From assembly GCF_947492715.1 (NCBI RefSeq), contig NZ_CANLNS010000003.1, positions 186,001-250,000 of the forward strand: a DNA stretch of 64,000 bases, in the 5' to 3' direction. This stretch comes from an uncultured Psychroserpens sp. (GTDB lineage Bacteria > Bacteroidota > Bacteroidia > Flavobacteriales > Flavobacteriaceae). Below, in pieces: positions 20,549-50,235 of this stretch. The stretch's first letter is position 1; each line of letters opens with the position of its first letter. Under the pieces are notes generated by a model. The model had not been told where the DNA came from. It ran no database searches and saw nothing but the letters and a program-made list of their open reading frames with translations. Position numbers and translations under genes: made by a program.

Positions 20549-21589
20549 ATGACCACAGAAAATACATCCATTGAACAGAATGACGATGAGTTATTCGAGC
20601 ATCACGCTTTTATAGTAGATAAGGGCCAAACTCCGCTGCGCATTGATAAATATTTGATGAATCGTATAGAGAATGCTACTCGAAATAAAATACAAGCTGC
20701 GGCTAAAGATGGAAGTATTTATGTAAATGATATGCCTGTAAAACAAAATTATAAGGTTAAGCCATTTGATAAGATTAGAGTACTTTTTGAGCATCCTCCT
20801 TATGAGTATTTACTAACACCAGAGAATATACCTTTAGATATAGTTTATGAAGATGATGAACTACTTGTTCTTAATAAACCTGCAGGAATGGTTGTGCACC
20901 CAGGCCATGGTAACTATTCAGGAACTTTAATTAATGCCTTGGTTTATCATTTCGAAAACTTACCTAATAACTCTAGTGAGCGACCAGGTTTAGTACATCG
21001 TATAGATAAAGATACCAGTGGCTTACTTGTTGTGGCAAAGACCGAGCAAGCAATGACCCATTTATCTAAGCAGTTTTTTGATAAAACAAGCGAACGCGAA
21101 TATGTAGCTATAGTATGGGGAAATATGTCAGAAGATGAAGGCTCTATAGAAGGGCATATTGGTCGTCATCCTAAAAACAGATTGCAGAATACAGTTTTCG
21201 AAGGAGACGATATAGATAAAGGAAAACCCGCAGTTACGCATTATAAAGTTATCGAACGTTTAGGTTATGTGACATTAGTGTCTTGTAAATTAGAAACGGG
21301 ACGCACGCATCAAATTCGCGTACACATGAAACACATTGGACATACCCTTTTCAATGATGAACGTTATGGAGGCGAGCGTATCTTAAAAGGGACAACTTTT
21401 TCTAAATACAAACAATTTGTAGATAATTGTTTTAAAGTGTTACCAAGACAAGCATTGCATGCTAAAACTTTAGGTTTTGAACATCCCAGAACGGGTGAAC
21501 ATATGAGTTTTGATTCTCCAATTCCTGATGATATGCAGCAGTGCATTGATAAATGGAGACATTATGCAAGACATCAAGATACAAATTGA
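20549..21589 (+). CDS. RluA-family rRNA pseudouridine synthase (RluD-like)
   Basis: 346 aa. The S4 RNA-binding domain (about 30-95) precedes the pseudouridine synthase domain. The catalytic motif is HRIDKDTSG (150-158) with the nucleophile Asp153, followed by LETGRTHQIRVHM. Length and S4 domain fit RluD, which modifies helix 69 of 23S rRNA, but the exact target cannot be read from sequence. Co-directional with the PASTA gene at 2-bp spacing. Confidence 0.95.
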   Translation: MTTENTSIEQNDDELFEHHAFIVDKGQTPLRIDKYLMNRIENATRNKIQAAAKDGSIYVNDMPVKQNYKVKPFDKIRVLFEHPPYEYLLTPENIPLDIVYEDDELLVLNKPAGMVVHPGHGNYSGTLINALVYHFENLPNNSSERPGLVHRIDKDTSGLLVVAKTEQAMTHLSKQFFDKTSEREYVAIVWGNMSEDEGSIEGHIGRHPKNRLQNTVFEGDDIDKGKPAVTHYKVIERLGYVTLVSCKLETGRTHQIRVHMKHIGHTLFNDERYGGERILKGTTFSKYKQFVDNCFKVLPRQALHAKTLGFEHPRTGEHMSFDSPIPDDMQQCIDKWRHYARHQDTN

Positions 21590-21619: not shown

Positions 21620-21627
21620 TATTTTTG
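21620..21627 (+). promoter_or_regulatory. Putative -7 element before the DDGYY-repeat gene
   Basis: TATTTTTG matches TAnnTTTG and lies 23 bp upstream of the start codon at 21651, so the repeat gene could have its own promoter. No -33 TTTG at standard spacing. Confidence 0.4.
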
Positions 21628-21650: not shown

Positions 21651-21893
21651 ATGAAAAGAAGAGACTTTATAAAGAAATCGGGACAAACATTAGTAATAAC
21701 TTCAGTAGCCAGTATTGTTGGGCTTTCGGCGGTTTCATGTTCGTCCGATTCTGATGACGATAATGGAATGTTTGATGATGGCTATTATGATGATGGCTAT
21801 TATGACGATGGTTACTATGATGACGGTTATTACGATGATGGATATTATGACGATGGTTACTATGATGACGGTTATTACGATGGGGGGTATTAA
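21651..21893 (+). CDS. Tat-signal lipoprotein consisting of DDGYY tandem repeats
   Basis: 80 aa. The N-terminus KRRDFIK (2-8) fits the twin-arginine motif (S/T)RRxFLK and is followed by a hydrophobic segment and a lipobox-like AVSC (Cys30). The predicted mature part starts CSSDSDDDNGMF and then consists of seven perfect DDGYY units (42-76) and a final DGGY. A Tat signal implies export after folding or modification in the cytoplasm. The repeats offer 14-15 Tyr and as many Asp as possible modification sites. Two downstream glycosyltransferase genes on the same strand are candidate modifying enzymes. It is not a recognised family to me; its function is unknown. Confidence 0.8.
   Translation: MKRRDFIKKSGQTLVITSVASIVGLSAVSCSSDSDDDNGMFDDGYYDDGYYDDGYYDDGYYDDGYYDDGYYDDGYYDGGY
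21774..21890 (+). repeat. 15-bp in-frame tandem repeat with 45-bp higher-order duplication
   Basis: Seven 15-bp units (21774-21878) encode DDGYY, plus a partial 12-bp unit. Units 2-4 (21789-21833) and 5-7 (21834-21878) are the same 45 bp with a single mismatch (ggc versus gga), and 33 bp from 21804 recur identically from 21849. Synonymous variation (gat/gac, tat/tac, ggc/ggt/gga) distinguishes units, so the repeat expanded by duplication while the peptide stayed unchanged. Confidence 0.95.
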
Positions 21894-22044
21894 TCCATTC
21901 AAATGATCTTATAAAAAATAGAATTTAGATTCTAGATATGGTGTTTTTTGAGTTATACAATTTGGTATAATTTGGAAAACACTTTTAGTTAATAAACATA
22001 TTTATTAATATTACTTCGCTTTTAACAAATCAAAAACTTTAAGA

Positions 22045-23223
22045 ATGGGAGCTCTCAAAAGTGCTGCAAAAGAATCTATTTTAGTCTATAAAAGTTATGG
22101 AGGTATAGGAGATATCTTTTTTACGGTTCCATCATTATACATGCTAAAGCAAAAGTTTAATGAGGTAACTTATGCAACGCAACCAAGACTAGTTAATCTT
22201 TTTAAAACCCATTTGGAAGGGATTCTGGTTATAGACGAAACTACTGTAGATGAATCTCATTATGATACTATTATAGAATTAGGCAATTATCCTCGATTTA
22301 ATAATGACCTAGAGAAGAAACCTCAAATAGTTTATCATACGCATAAAAAAGTAAAACAGCATTCCATTGAGCATTATAAGGATGGTATAGTTTCAGAATT
22401 TCCAGATATTGTTAAGACAAAAACAGCGTATCCATATTTTAAAAAAAGAAAAGCCTCCGAGATCTATTATACAGTGCACCCAGGAGCAGGTTTTATTTTA
22501 AAAGCTTGGCCAATTGACTATTATGCTAGTTTAATTGAGTTAATTTATGAGCACTATCCTCAATTAAAAGCGAAGATAATTATTGGTCCTAACGACCCAA
22601 ATCCAGAACCTTATTTTAAAAGTAAAGCACTTAACTACGAATTAGTTACTGGAGATATAGATGAAGTTGGGCATGTCGTTTCTGGCGCTCAGTTTCACAT
22701 AGGAAATGATGCTGGAATAACACATTTGGCAGGTGCATTTAATATCCCTATACTCACCATCTACGGACCTACAGGTCCTGGATCATGGGGAGCATTCTCT
22801 GAGAAAGTCGAGCTTATATGGGGAAAACGTGGGAATTGTAATTTGAGATGCAATTATGAAGTTATTATTAATTGTGAAGATAAGGTTTGTTTAAACAAAG
22901 TTTTACCTAAAAAAATGCTCTTTCAGTTATTAAAGCTACTCAATAAGATTTATAAATCTACCTCCCAATTGTATATTTTAAATCAAGATTTTAGGATTAT
23001 AATAGAGGATGATAGTTATATATTTAAAAGTAATGACAAAGAGTTCTTACTTGAAATTAAAGATTTTGAAAGCCGAAAGTTTTTAGCCAATAATCTTTCT
23101 GATAAAGACATTGATATTGAATATATGCCAACACAGTTTCTCGAAACTTTTAAGGCTTTAGAGCAATTAGATGTGTTTTATCCTTATCCTAATATTAATC
23201 ATAACACTTCGGCCAATGCTTAA
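22045..23223 (+). CDS. GT9 (heptosyltransferase-like) glycosyltransferase with extra C-terminal domain
   Basis: 392 aa. The GT-B fold of ADP-heptose:LPS heptosyltransferases (GT9) is seen in YKSYGGIGDIFFTVPSLYML near the N-terminus, HPGAGFILKAWP (145-156), HIGNDAGITHLAG (218-230) and PILTIYGPTGPGSWGAFS. A Cys-rich stretch (GNCNLRCNYEVIINCEDKVC, 263-282) follows. Residues about 300-385 are an addition beyond normal GT9 enzymes: a short beta segment (DFRIIIEDDSYIFKSNDKEF) then a helix (FLETFKALEQLDVF). This could be a small peptide-binding (PqqD/RRE-like) domain, but that is inference. It overlaps the next gene by 8 bp, and the repeat lipoprotein lies 151 bp upstream on the same strand. Confidence 0.88.
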   Translation: MGALKSAAKESILVYKSYGGIGDIFFTVPSLYMLKQKFNEVTYATQPRLVNLFKTHLEGILVIDETTVDESHYDTIIELGNYPRFNNDLEKKPQIVYHTHKKVKQHSIEHYKDGIVSEFPDIVKTKTAYPYFKKRKASEIYYTVHPGAGFILKAWPIDYYASLIELIYEHYPQLKAKIIIGPNDPNPEPYFKSKALNYELVTGDIDEVGHVVSGAQFHIGNDAGITHLAGAFNIPILTIYGPTGPGSWGAFSEKVELIWGKRGNCNLRCNYEVIINCEDKVCLNKVLPKKMLFQLLKLLNKIYKSTSQLYILNQDFRIIIEDDSYIFKSNDKEFLLEIKDFESRKFLANNLSDKDIDIEYMPTQFLETFKALEQLDVFYPYPNINHNTSANA

Positions 23224-24595
23224 CTTAGATAATGTGACCTTACTTGGTGTTGATTGTATTGATATTAATAGATTGATACAAGCTGCAGATATATCACAAA
23301 AATTTGTAAGTTTCAAATCGGTAAAGTTACTTACACATCTAGAGTCTAGCGACAAAAGAATTGTTAGAATCCCACAAATCGATTCTATTGAAGGGTATAG
23401 TAAGTTTATGATTAAAGAACTCGAAAAGTATGTAGATACTGAGTTTGTACTAATTTTTCAATATGACGGATTTGTACTTAACCCTAATCGTTGGTCTGAA
23501 ACCTTTTTAGAATATGACTATATCGGAGCTCCAGCTTTTTGGGGTATGGGAAATGGCGGATTTAGCCTTAGGTCTAAAAAATTACTCAGTATTCTTAGCG
23601 AAACTAATGATATTGAAGAATTCCACCCTGAAGATTTAAGAATATGTAAAACATATAGATCTTCTTTAGAATCTAAAGGCATTCAATTTGCACCAGAAGA
23701 AATAGCTCATAAATTTAGCGTAGAAAATAATGCATGGAATGGACAGTTTGGATTTCATAATGCAGATATTTCACTTTGGGATAGTAACAAGTTTATTAAT
23801 ACTAAGGCGCAGCAATTATTTATTGATAAAATTCAAAACCAAGGGCCTGATGCTAATGATCTAAAATTGAGTTACGTCGTACAGTTTTATCTTGAAGATA
23901 ATAAATCAAACCCCTTAGAAGAACTAATAAGAGTCTACAGTAGCTATAGCCGAGATATTTTAAAAAAAATTCATTTCGTGTTTGTTGATGACCATTCTAA
24001 CGTTCCAATTCATATCCCAGAGGATATCGTTTTAAATTATACGTTGCTAAGAGTTAAAACAGACATAAAATGGAATCAAGGAGGCGCCAGAAATCTTGGC
24101 GTGAAATACGCAAAATCTGAAAATATCATTGTTACAGATTTAGATATTCTGTTTCCAGAAAACTTATTGGGTAGATTAACAGATTATAAATTGCCTAATA
24201 ATTCGATATTTAAATTTAATACTATTTCCAACTTGCAAACGGTAAGACCTCACGTGAATGTGTTTTTTATGACGAAATCTATTTATATGAAAACTAATGG
24301 CGTCGACGAAGAATTCTGTGGTAATTATGGTTATGAAGATATATTCTTTTATCATCAACAAAAAGCAATTGGAACAAAGTTTTATTTGTATAGTTATTCT
24401 AATATAGTTCATAAAGAACATAAAGATTCCGAAGCAACTCAACATAATAGTTTAATAAGAGATGCTGAGATTAACGAAAAACTCATTGCAGATAAATTAG
24501 AAATTATTGCAACATCCAAAAATCCATTAGATGCTAGAAGTGAGTTATATCTTAATTTTGAATGGGAAGTGGTTTCAGAAGAAGTACAGAAGTAA
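23216..24595 (+). CDS. Two-domain glycosyltransferase: DUF5672 plus GT2/GT27-like
   Basis: 459 aa from the ATG at 23216. An in-frame upstream extension to 23171 lies inside the GT9 gene and is unlikely to be used, because the 8-bp ATGCTTAA overlap gives tight coupling. The N-terminal ~215 residues resemble DUF5672 (LLGVDCIDINRLIQAAD, FVLIFQYDGFVLNP, YIGAPAFWGMGNGGFSLRS), a GT-A-like domain found in glycan clusters. The C-terminal half has WNQGGARNLGVKYAKSENII and the metal-binding TDLDILFP (DxD), with NYGYEDIFFYH near the end as in galactosyltransferase C-terminal regions. So one polypeptide may add two sugars. Together with the GT9 gene it forms a compact operon. The acceptor is unknown. Confidence 0.85.
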   Translation: MLNLDNVTLLGVDCIDINRLIQAADISQKFVSFKSVKLLTHLESSDKRIVRIPQIDSIEGYSKFMIKELEKYVDTEFVLIFQYDGFVLNPNRWSETFLEYDYIGAPAFWGMGNGGFSLRSKKLLSILSETNDIEEFHPEDLRICKTYRSSLESKGIQFAPEEIAHKFSVENNAWNGQFGFHNADISLWDSNKFINTKAQQLFIDKIQNQGPDANDLKLSYVVQFYLEDNKSNPLEELIRVYSSYSRDILKKIHFVFVDDHSNVPIHIPEDIVLNYTLLRVKTDIKWNQGGARNLGVKYAKSENIIVTDLDILFPENLLGRLTDYKLPNNSIFKFNTISNLQTVRPHVNVFFMTKSIYMKTNGVDEEFCGNYGYEDIFFYHQQKAIGTKFYLYSYSNIVHKEHKDSEATQHNSLIRDAEINEKLIADKLEIIATSKNPLDARSELYLNFEWEVVSEEVQK

Positions 24596-24728: not shown

Positions 24729-25487
24729 ATGAAACTCGTACTCTCTCCAGCAAAATCATTAGACTTCGAAAGCAAGTTACCTACTACAAAAACAACTGAA
24801 GGCTGTTTTTTAAATGAAGCCGTACGTCTAAACAAGTTATTAAAGAAGAAATCTGCAAAAAGTTTGTCTAAATTGATGAAAATATCTGATAATTTGGGTC
24901 AACAAAATTACCAACGTAATCAGGATTGGAGCTTACCTTTTACACAAGACAACGCAAGACAGGCCATTTATGCATTTAGCGGAGATGTTTATAGAGGACT
25001 AGATGCTTATACTATTGATTCAAAAAAAATAGACAAACTCCAAGATACAGTAAGGGTCATTTCAGGATTGTATGGTGTTTTAAAACCTTTAGATTTAATT
25101 CAGCCTTATCGATTGGAAATGGGAACAAAATTTCCCGTTGGAAAGAATAAAAACCTCTACGAGTTTTGGCGAAAGAAAGTAACTCAAGCCTTAAATGAAG
25201 AACTTGAAGAAGATGAATTATTTTTAAACCTTGCTAGCAACGAATACTTTAAGGCCATAGATACGAAAGCCTTAAAAGTGCCAGTAATTACTGCAAATTT
25301 TAAAGATTTTAAGAACGGAGAGTATAAAACAATAATGACCTTTGCCAAACTAGCACGAGGCTATATGACACGCTATATTATTGATTCTAATGCAAAAAGT
25401 ATAGATGATGTAAAAGGGTTTAATTATGAAAATTATCGATTCTCAGATGAATTATCTAGTGCAACCGAACTTGTATTTACAAGATAA
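24729..25487 (+). CDS. yaaA: Peroxide stress protein YaaA (DUF328/UPF0246)
   Basis: 252 aa, typical. The family signatures LVLSPAKSLDFES at the start, FSGDVYRGLDAYT, RVISGLYGVLKPLDLIQPYRLEMGTK, NLASNEYFKA and KLARGYMTRYI are all present. E. coli YaaA lowers free iron and protects DNA during H2O2 stress and has DNA-binding ability. The stop shares one base with the ATG of the downstream uracil-DNA-glycosylase-like gene, so here it is coupled to a probable DNA repair protein. Confidence 0.96.
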   Translation: MKLVLSPAKSLDFESKLPTTKTTEGCFLNEAVRLNKLLKKKSAKSLSKLMKISDNLGQQNYQRNQDWSLPFTQDNARQAIYAFSGDVYRGLDAYTIDSKKIDKLQDTVRVISGLYGVLKPLDLIQPYRLEMGTKFPVGKNKNLYEFWRKKVTQALNEELEEDELFLNLASNEYFKAIDTKALKVPVITANFKDFKNGEYKTIMTFAKLARGYMTRYIIDSNAKSIDDVKGFNYENYRFSDELSSATELVFTR

Positions 25488-47922: not shown

Positions 47923-50235
47923 ATGAAATTTACCTTAAAATCTGTGTGGCTCAAACGTTTTCTTAAAGCTGCAGTAGGAGGCTTTTCGTTAGTCTTATTA
48001 TTTTGGTTTTCTGTTTACATGGGTTTTTGGGGAAAATTACCTTCTAAAGAAGACATTAAAAGTCTTAAACAAGCCGAAGCTTCGTTGCTTTTAGATGCAA
48101 ACGACGAATTATTAGGTAAATATTTTGTTTTTGATAGGCAAATAGTAAAATATGATGACCTGCCTAAACATTTGGTAAATGCTCTTGTCGCTACGGAAGA
48201 TGCACGTTTCTATGAACACAATGGTGTAGATTATACGAGTTTAATCCGTGTGTTTTTCAAATCTATTTTGATGCAAAATAACTCATCTGGAGGTGGGAGT
48301 ACCATTAGCCAACAACTGGTTAAAAATATCTATAAGAGGGAAAAGCATGGTTGGTTTACGATGCCTGTAAATAAAGTCAGGGAAATGATTCTTGCAAAGC
48401 GTTTTGAAAGTATCTATTCTAAAAACGAAATCATAGCCATGTATTTAAATACTGTGCCTTTTAGTGAGAATGTTTTTGGTATAGAAAGCGCTTCTCAACG
48501 GTTTTTTAATAGTAAAACTAAAGATCTCAACTTGGCGCAATCAGCCACTTTAATCGGAACATTAAAAGCAACCCATAGTTTTAATCCTCGATTATTTCCA
48601 GAGCGAAGTCAGTTGCGACGAGATGTTGTGCTTCAGCAAATGGAGAAATATGGTTTTATTGATGAAGACTTAAAAGTAGCCACCAGCGATATCCCTTTGA
48701 CAACCAACTATAAAAAGTTTAATGCTAATAACGGTGTTGCCCCATATTTTCGTGAGAAAGTGCGATTAGAAGTTAAAAGTTTGTTGGACAGTGTAAATAC
48801 AAAGAATAAAACATCTTATGATCTCTATAAAGATGGTTTGAAAATTTACACGACACTCGATATTGATATGCAGCGTTATGCTGAGACAGCGATGCAAGAG
48901 CATATGAAATCGTTACAAGCACAATTTGAAAAGGCCTATGGCAAGAATGCGCCATGGATAAAAAATACAGCATTAATAAACAAGCGTATCAAAGGTCTGA
49001 AACTTTATAAATCATTGAAAAATAAAAAATGGAGTGATAAGGATATCATGGATAGCCTTAAGGTTCAAGGAACCTTTAATTTGTTTTCATGGAATAAAGA
49101 TGAGACCCTTAAAAAGGGATCTGTTATTGATAGCCTAAAACATACGATGAAATTTTTAAATACTGGTTTCGTTGCTGTTGATCCTAGTTCGGGAGCAATA
49201 AAAGCCTATGTTGGAGGTATAAATTTTGAGCATTTTAAGTTTGATCATGTGGCATCCTCGAAAAGACAAGTAGGGTCTACATTTAAACCTATAGTATATA
49301 CTACGGCTTTAGAAAGAGGAATTGAACCTTGTAGTTACTATTCGGTAAAAGAAGTGACATATACCAACCAAAAGGGTTGGACTCCAACAAATGGAGGTAA
49401 AGAAGAAGCAGATAGGCACCTCAATTACTCATTAGAGAAGGCTATGAGTGAATCTATTAATACCATTGCGGTAAAAGTGTTAGAGGATGTAGGCATAGAT
49501 TCTGTTATTGAACAAGCACAAAAAATGGGTATTTTATCAGAACTACCCAATGTACCTTCTTTGGCATTGGGTACGGCTCAGTTATCTATGTTAGAACTTA
49601 TAGGAGCTTATACAAGTTATGCCAACGATGGGCGAGTGTCTAAGCCATTTTATATTACCAAAATAACTGATAAGTCTGGAGAGGTAATTTATGAGCGCCC
49701 TAAAGCAGAACCTATGCCAGAAGCCTTTTCTAAGGAGACGAGGCAGACTATGATTGAAATGATGAAATCTACCATTAATTCTGGTACGGCAAATCGCATG
49801 CGTTCGCGTTATGGACTTAAAAATGACTTGGCAGGAAAAACCGGGACTACTCAGAACAATAAGGATGGTTGGTTTGTTGCTGTGAGCCCAAAACTTGTTA
49901 TGTTGTCGTGGGTTGGAAATGATGATCATCGTATTGGATTTAGTAATACATCTATTGGTCAAGGCGCTAATTCGGCATTGCCAACCACAGCCTTGTTTTT
50001 AAAGCTGATGAATCGAGATAAACGATTTAATTATATTACTCAGGCCACATTTGAAACGCCTTCAGAATCGGTAAAAGAGGCGCTCGCCTGTGATGAAGAA
50101 AAGCGAGATGGTTTTTTAAAACGTCTGTTCAAAAAAGATCGTAAAGAACGAGAGTTCGATATTGAAAGCGAGGATAGTAAGAAGAAAAAGAAGAAAGGCT
50201 TGTTTGGTTTTTTGAAGAAGAAGGACGAGGACTAA
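47923..50235 (+). CDS. Class A penicillin-binding protein (PBP1A type)
   Basis: 770 aa. A membrane anchor (about 15-32), a GT51 transglycosylase domain (ATEDARFYEHNGVD, GGSTISQQLVKNIY, KNEIIAMYLNTVPF) and a transpeptidase domain (SxxK in GSTFKP, SESINTIAVK as SxN, and KTGTT). A linker and a long Lys-rich C-terminal tail (KKKKKGLFGFLKKKDED-like) follow, the latter cytosolic-like in charge but exported. Polymerises and cross-links peptidoglycan. Stand-alone gene. Confidence 0.96.
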   Translation: MKFTLKSVWLKRFLKAAVGGFSLVLLFWFSVYMGFWGKLPSKEDIKSLKQAEASLLLDANDELLGKYFVFDRQIVKYDDLPKHLVNALVATEDARFYEHNGVDYTSLIRVFFKSILMQNNSSGGGSTISQQLVKNIYKREKHGWFTMPVNKVREMILAKRFESIYSKNEIIAMYLNTVPFSENVFGIESASQRFFNSKTKDLNLAQSATLIGTLKATHSFNPRLFPERSQLRRDVVLQQMEKYGFIDEDLKVATSDIPLTTNYKKFNANNGVAPYFREKVRLEVKSLLDSVNTKNKTSYDLYKDGLKIYTTLDIDMQRYAETAMQEHMKSLQAQFEKAYGKNAPWIKNTALINKRIKGLKLYKSLKNKKWSDKDIMDSLKVQGTFNLFSWNKDETLKKGSVIDSLKHTMKFLNTGFVAVDPSSGAIKAYVGGINFEHFKFDHVASSKRQVGSTFKPIVYTTALERGIEPCSYYSVKEVTYTNQKGWTPTNGGKEEADRHLNYSLEKAMSESINTIAVKVLEDVGIDSVIEQAQKMGILSELPNVPSLALGTAQLSMLELIGAYTSYANDGRVSKPFYITKITDKSGEVIYERPKAEPMPEAFSKETRQTMIEMMKSTINSGTANRMRSRYGLKNDLAGKTGTTQNNKDGWFVAVSPKLVMLSWVGNDDHRIGFSNTSIGQGANSALPTTALFLKLMNRDKRFNYITQATFETPSESVKEALACDEEKRDGFLKRLFKKDRKEREFDIESEDSKKKKKKGLFGFLKKKDED

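What the first reader, a model, noticed from the sequence alone, without database searches (positions are those of the whole stretch)
21651..24595. Tat-exported DDGYY-repeat lipoprotein followed by two glycosyltransferase genes: candidate modified-repeat-peptide system
Seen: an 80-aa protein with a KRRDFIK Tat motif, AVSC lipobox and seven DDGYY repeats. On the same strand, 151 bp later, come a GT9-type enzyme with an unusual C-terminal extension and an overlapping DUF5672+GT2 protein (three glycosyltransferase domains in total). Known: Tat exports proteins already folded or modified in the cytoplasm, and these glycosyltransferases use cytoplasmic nucleotide sugars. Inference: the repeat peptide is glycosylated on Tyr or Asp in the cytoplasm and then exported by Tat and lipidated, giving a surface glycopeptide with one sugar chain per repeat. 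A RiPP-like precursor/maturase pair is an alternative.
Basis: partly seen in the sequence, partly recalled or inferred. Interest (0 to 1): 0.85.

Follow-up and report, generated by a model that had tools for sequence, protein, structure and literature searches.

The report
Repeat lipoprotein paired with glycosyltransferase
In some marine bacteria a tiny exported protein built of repeats of the letters D-G-Y-Y is encoded beside its own sugar-transferring enzyme, which suggests a so far undescribed way of making sugar-coated surface peptides inside the cell before export.

Summary
The 80-aa Tat/lipobox peptide with seven DDGYY repeats is followed by a GT9 enzyme and a DUF5672+GT2 protein. In 23 genomes of the genus, 13 have peptide, GT9 and GT2, 10 have none. 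In 397 genomes of the family, 27 have the peptide, 28 the GT9, 27 both; the odd one has its GT9 at a contig end. In 33 of 34 loci the GT9 frame opens directly behind the peptide, in differing chromosomal settings. The GT9 C-terminal extension resembles RiPP recognition elements, weakly and not by the strict definition; one genome keeps it as a separate 79-aa gene. Codon changes show selection on DGYY. Best reading: GT9 glycosylates the repeats, probably on Tyr, in the cytoplasm; Tat then exports a surface lipoprotein. Modification, acceptor and donor are unproven; a heptose-kinase domain was not found in 28 of 28 system genomes.

The parts
21651..21893 (+). Repeat peptide: Tat-type lipoprotein precursor, 80 aa, seven DDGYY units
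   Evidence: homologues
21651..21737 (+). Twin-arginine signal peptide, residues 1-29 (KRRDFIK ... AVS); possible leader for enzyme recognition (inference)
   Evidence: RRxF[ILV] in 38 of 38 distinct peptides, G/A/S before Cys in 38 of 38
21738..21764 (+). Cys30 and acidic stretch CSSDSDDDN, resembles the Bacteroidota lipoprotein export signal
   Evidence: 36 of 38 peptides have at least 3 acidic and no basic residue at +2..+9 (my own criterion); signal described in PMC5080379 (passages)
21774..21890 (+). Repeat region: seven DDGYY units and terminal DGGY
   Evidence: unit statistics
22045..23223 (+). GT9-fold glycosyltransferase, 392 aa, with C-terminal extension
   Evidence: PF01075; model pLDDT 86.1; best PDB matches WaaF, a Veillonella GT9, WaaC, then TibC
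22837..22890 (+). Four invariant cysteines C265-x3-C269-x7-C277-x4-C282
   Evidence: 63 of 63 aligned sequences; motif in 32 of 32 GT9 frames
22951..23220 (+). C-terminal domain of GT9 (residues 303-392), fold like RiPP recognition elements; candidate peptide-binding module (inference)
   Evidence: model pLDDT 85.4; PDB matches; free-standing homologue in L089
23216..24595 (+). DUF5672 + GT2 protein (ORF open from 23171; likely start 23216), probable chain-extending transferases (inference)
   Evidence: PF18922, PF00535; DLD in 12 of 12 aligned GT2 rows; family survey

Best explanation
A dedicated cytoplasmic protein-glycosylation system. (1) The peptide is made with a Tat signal (shown by sequence). 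(2) The GT9 enzyme binds the unmodified precursor, probably through its RRE-like C-terminal domain, and attaches a first sugar to the repeats, most likely to a Tyr of each DGYY unit (inferred). (3) Accessory transferases, which differ between lineages (DUF5672 and GT2 here; a fused GT4-type domain in most loci read; a GT25 domain in some database relatives), extend the chain (inferred from domain content). (4) The modified peptide is exported by Tat, lipidated at the Cys after the signal peptide and, because of its acidic post-Cys stretch, moved to the outside of the outer membrane (inferred from motifs). The product would be a small lipid-anchored glycopeptide with several sugar chains.
For: Co-occurrence in the genus (13 all, 10 none of 23; in three of the 13 only the GT2 part of the third gene is there) and 27 of 27 peptide and 28 GT9 genomes in the family sample (Fisher 5e-41, not corrected for kinship). 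Same order and strand in 33 of 34 loci, GT9 frame opening at most 171 nt behind the peptide stop, although flanking genes differ. In the genus the unit sits at two different sites, and rluD is followed directly by yaaA in 11 of the 13 genomes without the unit there. The partner GT is exchanged while GT9 stays. GT9 Asp23, Lys153 and Asp222 are invariant in 63 rows; the last two align with WaaC 192 and 261 (their catalytic role is recalled). EX7E in 24 of 25 fusions, DLD in 12 of 12 GT2 rows. Synonymous/nonsynonymous changes between neighbouring units are 148/14, 186/6, 136/5 and 152/8 at positions 2-5 but 96/79 at position 1. TatC in 28 of 28 system genomes. RRE-like C-terminal fold. Precedent for Tyr O-glycosylation with GT2 and GT4 enzymes: cacaoidin (PMC8068269, passages).
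Confidence: 0.66

Rival explanations
1. RiPP pathway in the narrow sense: the Tat region is a leader, the repeats are the core, and short (glyco)peptides are cut out and released as a signal or toxin.
For: Small precursor, adjacent modifying enzyme, RRE-like domain, free-standing RRE-like ORF beside a peptide.
Against: Only peptide and GT9 genes are shared by nearly all loci, the next cluster being in 11 of 33 regions, so no peptidase or exporter is a constant neighbour. A lipobox-type Cys (38 of 38) and acidic stretch (36 of 38) follow the signal. 9 of 38 peptides continue after the repeats into a further conserved stretch of about 110 aa, which suits a surface protein.
Confidence: 0.12
2. 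The peptide is the anchor or primer on which a longer polysaccharide is built (glycogenin-like), the repeats serving as multiple priming sites.
For: Several GT domains per locus; Tyr-rich acceptor; the one GT2 relative found outside the system lies among polysaccharide-type genes (these named by eye).
Against: No third gene is constant across the loci; in most loci the four profiles I used found only GT4 and GT9 domains next to the peptide.
Confidence: 0.1
3. The transferases make or trim LPS or capsule and the repeat peptide is an unmodified acidic, Tyr-rich surface or metal-binding protein; the linkage reflects shared regulation only.
For: The best-matching known GT9 enzymes are LPS heptosyltransferases; acidic repeats could bind metal.
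Against: The two-gene unit is kept together in differing settings and is present or absent as a whole; the heptose-kinase domain of classical ADP-heptose synthesis was not found in 28 of 28 system genomes.
Confidence: 0.1

Closest known systems
Bacterial autotransporter heptosyltransferases (TibC/AAH with TibA/AIDA-I)
   Different: No N-terminal beta-barrel region, different cysteine spacing (C-x3-C-x7-C-x4-C against Cys339/342/358/370), extra C-terminal domain, Tat lipoprotein instead of autotransporter, heptose-kinase domain not found.
RRE-containing RiPP enzymes (ThcOx, LynD, McbB, PbtF, lasso B1 proteins)
   Same: The C-terminal domain resembles parts of these enzymes; the enzyme is encoded beside a small precursor.
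   Different: Strict RRE order is bbb-aaa (PMC12710340, passages); here bbbb-a-b-a-b. The passages I saw name RRE fusions to PF00535 glycosyltransferases and none to PF01075. The product here looks like a surface lipoprotein.
Glycosylated RiPPs, cacaoidin (Tyr-linked disaccharide)
   Same: Several GTs (GT2, GT4) proposed for an O-glycosylated Tyr in a ribosomal peptide (PMC8068269, passages).
   Different: One glycosylated Tyr, lanthipeptide chemistry, made by a Streptomyces; the three GTs named there are of families 2 and 4.
Serine-rich repeat adhesins with GtfA/GtfB and accessory Sec (recalled)
   Same: Cytoplasmic stepwise glycosylation of a repeat surface protein by a dedicated enzyme set with lineage-specific extenders.
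   Different: Ser/Thr acceptors and Gram-positive accessory Sec rather than Tat; nothing here was compared with GtfA/GtfB.

Membership tests
Bacterial autotransporter heptosyltransferase (BAHT) | GT9-type catalytic fold | tested here: met
Bacterial autotransporter heptosyltransferase (BAHT) | N-terminal beta-barrel domain | tested here: not met
   Residue 1 of the protein aligns with TibC residue 86; nothing precedes the catalytic fold in the model
Bacterial autotransporter heptosyltransferase (BAHT) | Iron finger, Cys at 339, 342, 358, 370 in TibC | tested here: not met
   Four invariant Cys but spacing x3-x7-x4 instead of x2-x15-x11; metal binding untested
Bacterial autotransporter heptosyltransferase (BAHT) | ADP-heptose donor | tested here: inconclusive
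   No RfaE domain I (TIGR02198) at E<=1e-20 in 28 of 28 system genomes; other routes not searched
RiPP recognition element (RRE) | bbb-aaa fold | tested here: not met
   bbbb-a-b-a-b in the window's domain; one helix fewer. Relatives' domains were not modelled
RiPP recognition element (RRE) | Structural similarity to solved RREs | tested here: inconclusive
RiPP recognition element (RRE) | Binds the leader of the precursor | not testable with these tools
   No complex prediction or binding data
RiPP system | Precursor gene beside modifying enzyme | tested here: met
   33 of 34 loci; that the enzyme modifies the peptide is inferred
RiPP system | Modified core, leader removed | not testable with these tools
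   Needs mass spectrometry
Tat-exported lipoprotein | Twin-arginine motif, lipobox-type Cys and a TatC in the genome | tested here: met
   RRxF[ILV] 38 of 38, G/A/S before Cys 38 of 38; TatC in 28 of 28
Surface lipoprotein with LES | Polar then acidic residues directly after Cys | tested here: met
   36 of 38 by my own criterion; compared with SDDDD/SDDFE of PMC5080379 (passages). The paper shows that the motif differs between species; location itself is untested
GT4 glycosyltransferase (N-terminal domain of the fusions) | EX7E motif (recalled) | tested here: met
   24 of 25 fusions; L093 has lost that part. PF00534 is precomputed for some relatives, e.g. P0068; Pfam shows no GT4 in the L097, L085 and L093 fusions scanned
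Serine-rich repeat glycoprotein system | GtfA/GtfB and accessory Sec | not tested
   No search made

The most novel reading that the evidence does not exclude
A new class of ribosomal glycopeptide in which the Tat signal peptide doubles as the leader: an RRE-like domain fused to a GT9 (or GT4-GT9) enzyme binds the Tat region, the enzyme adds a sugar to a Tyr of every DGYY repeat, lineage-specific transferases extend it, and Tat, lipidation and the surface-export signal display a multivalent Tyr-O-glycan on the outer membrane of Flavobacteriaceae.
Probability: 0.35. Interest if true: 0.9.

Novelty: new variant of a known kind. Interest (0 to 1): 0.76.

Why it matters
It would add a cytoplasmic, repeat-directed protein glycosylation route in Bacteroidota, tie the Tat pathway to export of a pre-modified glycopeptide, and link RiPP-style peptide recognition to a GT9 enzyme. 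A two-gene minimal unit (peptide plus one fused enzyme) is also easy to test and could become a tool for multivalent glycosylation.

Tried and rejected
BAHT membership: considered because of the GT9 fold, repeat glycosylation and the four cysteines. I had first recalled a TibC cysteine spacing like ours; the paper gives Cys339/342/358/370, so it was dropped.

Sequence proof of an RRE: Pfam scan of 32 extension sequences, no PqqD; the PDB profile search gave CyaGox and a SagB-type dehydrogenase (N-terminal parts) at E 0.4 beside a designed protein, but septins and SegC with a second profile that included the free-standing ORF. NCBIfam gives nothing useful for the domain. I therefore rest on structure alone and call it RRE-like.

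DUF5672+GT2 as an obligatory partner: rejected; the GT2 profile finds 7 of 397 genomes, 6 beside a peptide and one (G403, lower score) among polysaccharide-type genes.

Wider spread: in phylum-wide samples neither the GT9 profile (345 genomes) nor the peptide profile (296) hit anything but the own genome. As none of the other genomes known to be positive turned up, the samples did not contain them, so these two searches say little about how far the system reaches. No plasmid match at the limits used.

Literature: searches for DUF5672 with glycosyltransferase, Tat/lipoprotein/tyrosine glycosylation/Bacteroidetes, DGYY strings, RiPP with Tat and lipoprotein, GT9 and cytoplasmic glycosylation, Psychroserpens with lipoprotein/glycosylation/Tat listed no paper that describes this system by its title or the start of its abstract. 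Some lists were capped (10 of 1,942, 8 of 2,753), and the library is open-access PMC only. Passages of a survey of RiPP clusters in Bacteroidales (PMC10352776) mention glycosyltransferases and S-glycosyltransferases in some clusters, with no occurrence of 'lipoprotein' or 'Tat'.

Rows dropped: 6 of 33 genomes with peptide-profile matches at E<=0.001 (G031, G036, G266, G365, G380, G392; E 5.4e-5 to 1e-3) were left out as partial matches inside frames of 194-653 codons; none is among the GT9 genomes.

Full report
1. The observation. The window holds, on the + strand, an rluD-like gene (20549-21589), the 80-aa peptide (21651-21893), a GT9 gene (22045-23223), a DUF5672+GT2 gene (likely 23216-24595) and yaaA (24729-25487). 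The peptide has the twin-arginine motif, a Cys at residue 30 preceded by AVS, an acidic stretch and seven exact DDGYY units. Codons differ between units, so it is not a fresh expansion.

2. It is a conserved gene. A protein search gave 17 relatives, all short proteins with a twin-arginine start and DGYY-type repeats; six of the 17 have a longest contig of exactly the length given for a GT9 relative, consistent with shared contigs. Among 38 distinct peptides read from the genome loci, all have RRxF[ILV], all have G/A/S before Cys, 36 have at least three acidic and no basic residue in the eight positions after Cys, and the repeat count by my pattern runs from 4 to 19, median 8. The acidic stretch resembles the export signal of surface lipoproteins in Bacteroidota (PMC5080379, passages read).

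3. Pairing with the glycosyltransferase. In the 23 genomes of the genus held here, peptide, GT9 and the third gene occur in the same 13 and are missing from the same 10; in three of the 13 (G001, G014, G018) only the GT2 part of the third gene matches. In 397 genomes of the family the peptide profile hits 33 at E<=0.001; 27 hits are strong (E<=1e-27) and 6 weak ones (E>=5e-5, inside longer frames) were set aside. The GT9 profile hits 28, all at E<=2.2e-169; 27 are the peptide genomes. The 28th, G126, has the GT9 on the minus strand at 48526-50031 of a contig that ends at 50053, so a peptide may lie beyond the end. Fisher's test gives 5e-41 for the family and 9e-7 for the genus, but these ignore kinship; on a RluD tree of the genus the presence pattern needs 5 changes, with 2 independent pairs on well-supported branches and 5 on all.

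4. The unit stays together. I fetched 33 regions around peptides, 25 from the family sample and 8 from the genus (G001 and G021 count for the genus), and read them with the window. In 33 of 34 loci the GT9 frame opens directly behind the peptide on the same strand, at most 171 nt away. Clustering of neighbours shows peptide and GT9 in nearly all regions, the next cluster (GT2) in 11; the flanks fall into different settings: rluD/yaaA, a lysS-like gene, a nitroreductase setting (PF00881), a setting with sigma-70-, rpe- and ftsZ-like genes, and single cases (lysS, sigma-70, rpe and ftsZ named by eye). Where genomes of the genus lack the unit at rluD, yaaA follows directly in 11 of 13; in G018 a 218-aa ORF lies between, in G022 about 1 kb without an ORF of 90 aa.

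5. Architecture varies around a constant GT9. In ten genomes of the genus and in G177 the order is peptide, GT9, DUF5672+GT2. Of the 32 GT9 frames in the fetched regions 25 are fusions behind a GT4-type domain, 686-719 codons from stop to stop except L093 with 565; the EX7E motif is in 24 of 25. Some database relatives have a GT25 domain there (P0073, P0096). The GT2 subfamily is found in 7 of 397 genomes, six of them beside a peptide; the seventh lies among polysaccharide-type genes. I infer that GT9 starts the modification and the others extend it.

7. What is selected in the repeat. In 332 units position 1 is D 248, G 49, N 16 and others; positions 2-5 are D 319, G 327, Y 325, Y 326. Between neighbouring units, synonymous against nonsynonymous codon changes are 96/79, 148/14, 186/6, 136/5 and 152/8. 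So the selected unit is x-D-G-Y-Y. Peptides of related genomes are counted separately, so the numbers are not independent. Both Tyr are nearly fixed, but so are Asp and Gly, as one would expect of a recognition sequence around an acceptor.

8. Donor and export. TatC is present in 28 of 28 system genomes. The heptose-kinase domain TIGR02198 is not found at E<=1e-20 in any of the 28; 3 of 12 comparison genomes give weak hits below the family's cut-off. A classical ADP-heptose donor is therefore unlikely, although the fold is that of heptosyltransferases.

9. Mechanism and standing. Shown: the genes, their conservation, their pairing, the predicted enzyme folds, the selected repeat unit. Inferred: that the peptide is the acceptor, that it is modified before export, that Tyr carries the sugar, that the C-terminal domain binds the peptide, and surface display. 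Nearest in principle are the autotransporter heptosyltransferases (PMC4358343, abstract and passages), Tyr-glycosylated RiPPs (PMC8068269, passages) and, recalled, the serine-rich repeat adhesins; the system fails defining tests of the first and of a strict RRE. It is best filed as a new variant: dedicated cytoplasmic glycosylation of a Tat-exported repeat lipoprotein.

Noticed in passing
L089:7752-7988 (-), genome G251: Free-standing 79-aa ORF like the GT9 C-terminal extension, between a repeat peptide and a GT2-only gene; a near-identical protein is recorded from Hanstruepera ponticola (P0119).
   Followed up: yes
L072, L073, L074, L075, L076, L084, L085, L088, L095: Nine of 38 peptides continue after the repeats into a conserved stretch of about 110 aa that looks lipocalin-like (recalled pattern); no Pfam hit in the two scanned and no PDB sequence hit for the one tried.
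   Followed up: partly
L075:8033-9063: Two tandem repeat peptides in one locus (G122): one repeat-only, one with the extra C-terminal stretch.
   Followed up: no
L093:8067-8357: Diverged repeats (VDGYY, MDGYY, EDGYY, NDGYY) next to a fusion whose GT4-type part has lost its EX7E region, with a GT2 gene on the other strand.
   Followed up: partly
L072, L077, L079, L080, L081, L083, L085, L092: In 8 of the 11 GT4::GT9 frames printed the start seems to be TTG rather than ATG (read by eye), possibly keeping enzyme levels low relative to the peptide.
   Followed up: no
window 21620-21627: TATTTTTG upstream of the peptide fits the Bacteroidota promoter element TAnnTTTG (recalled), so the peptide may have its own promoter.
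   Followed up: no
P0073, P0077, P0081, P0096: GT9 relatives with an N-terminal GT25 domain (PF01755) instead of GT4; their gene context was not available.
   Followed up: no
P0095, P0110: GT9 relatives of 685 and 564 aa named as from Flavobacterium silvaticum and F. sediminis; whether a repeat peptide sits beside them was not checked.
   Followed up: no
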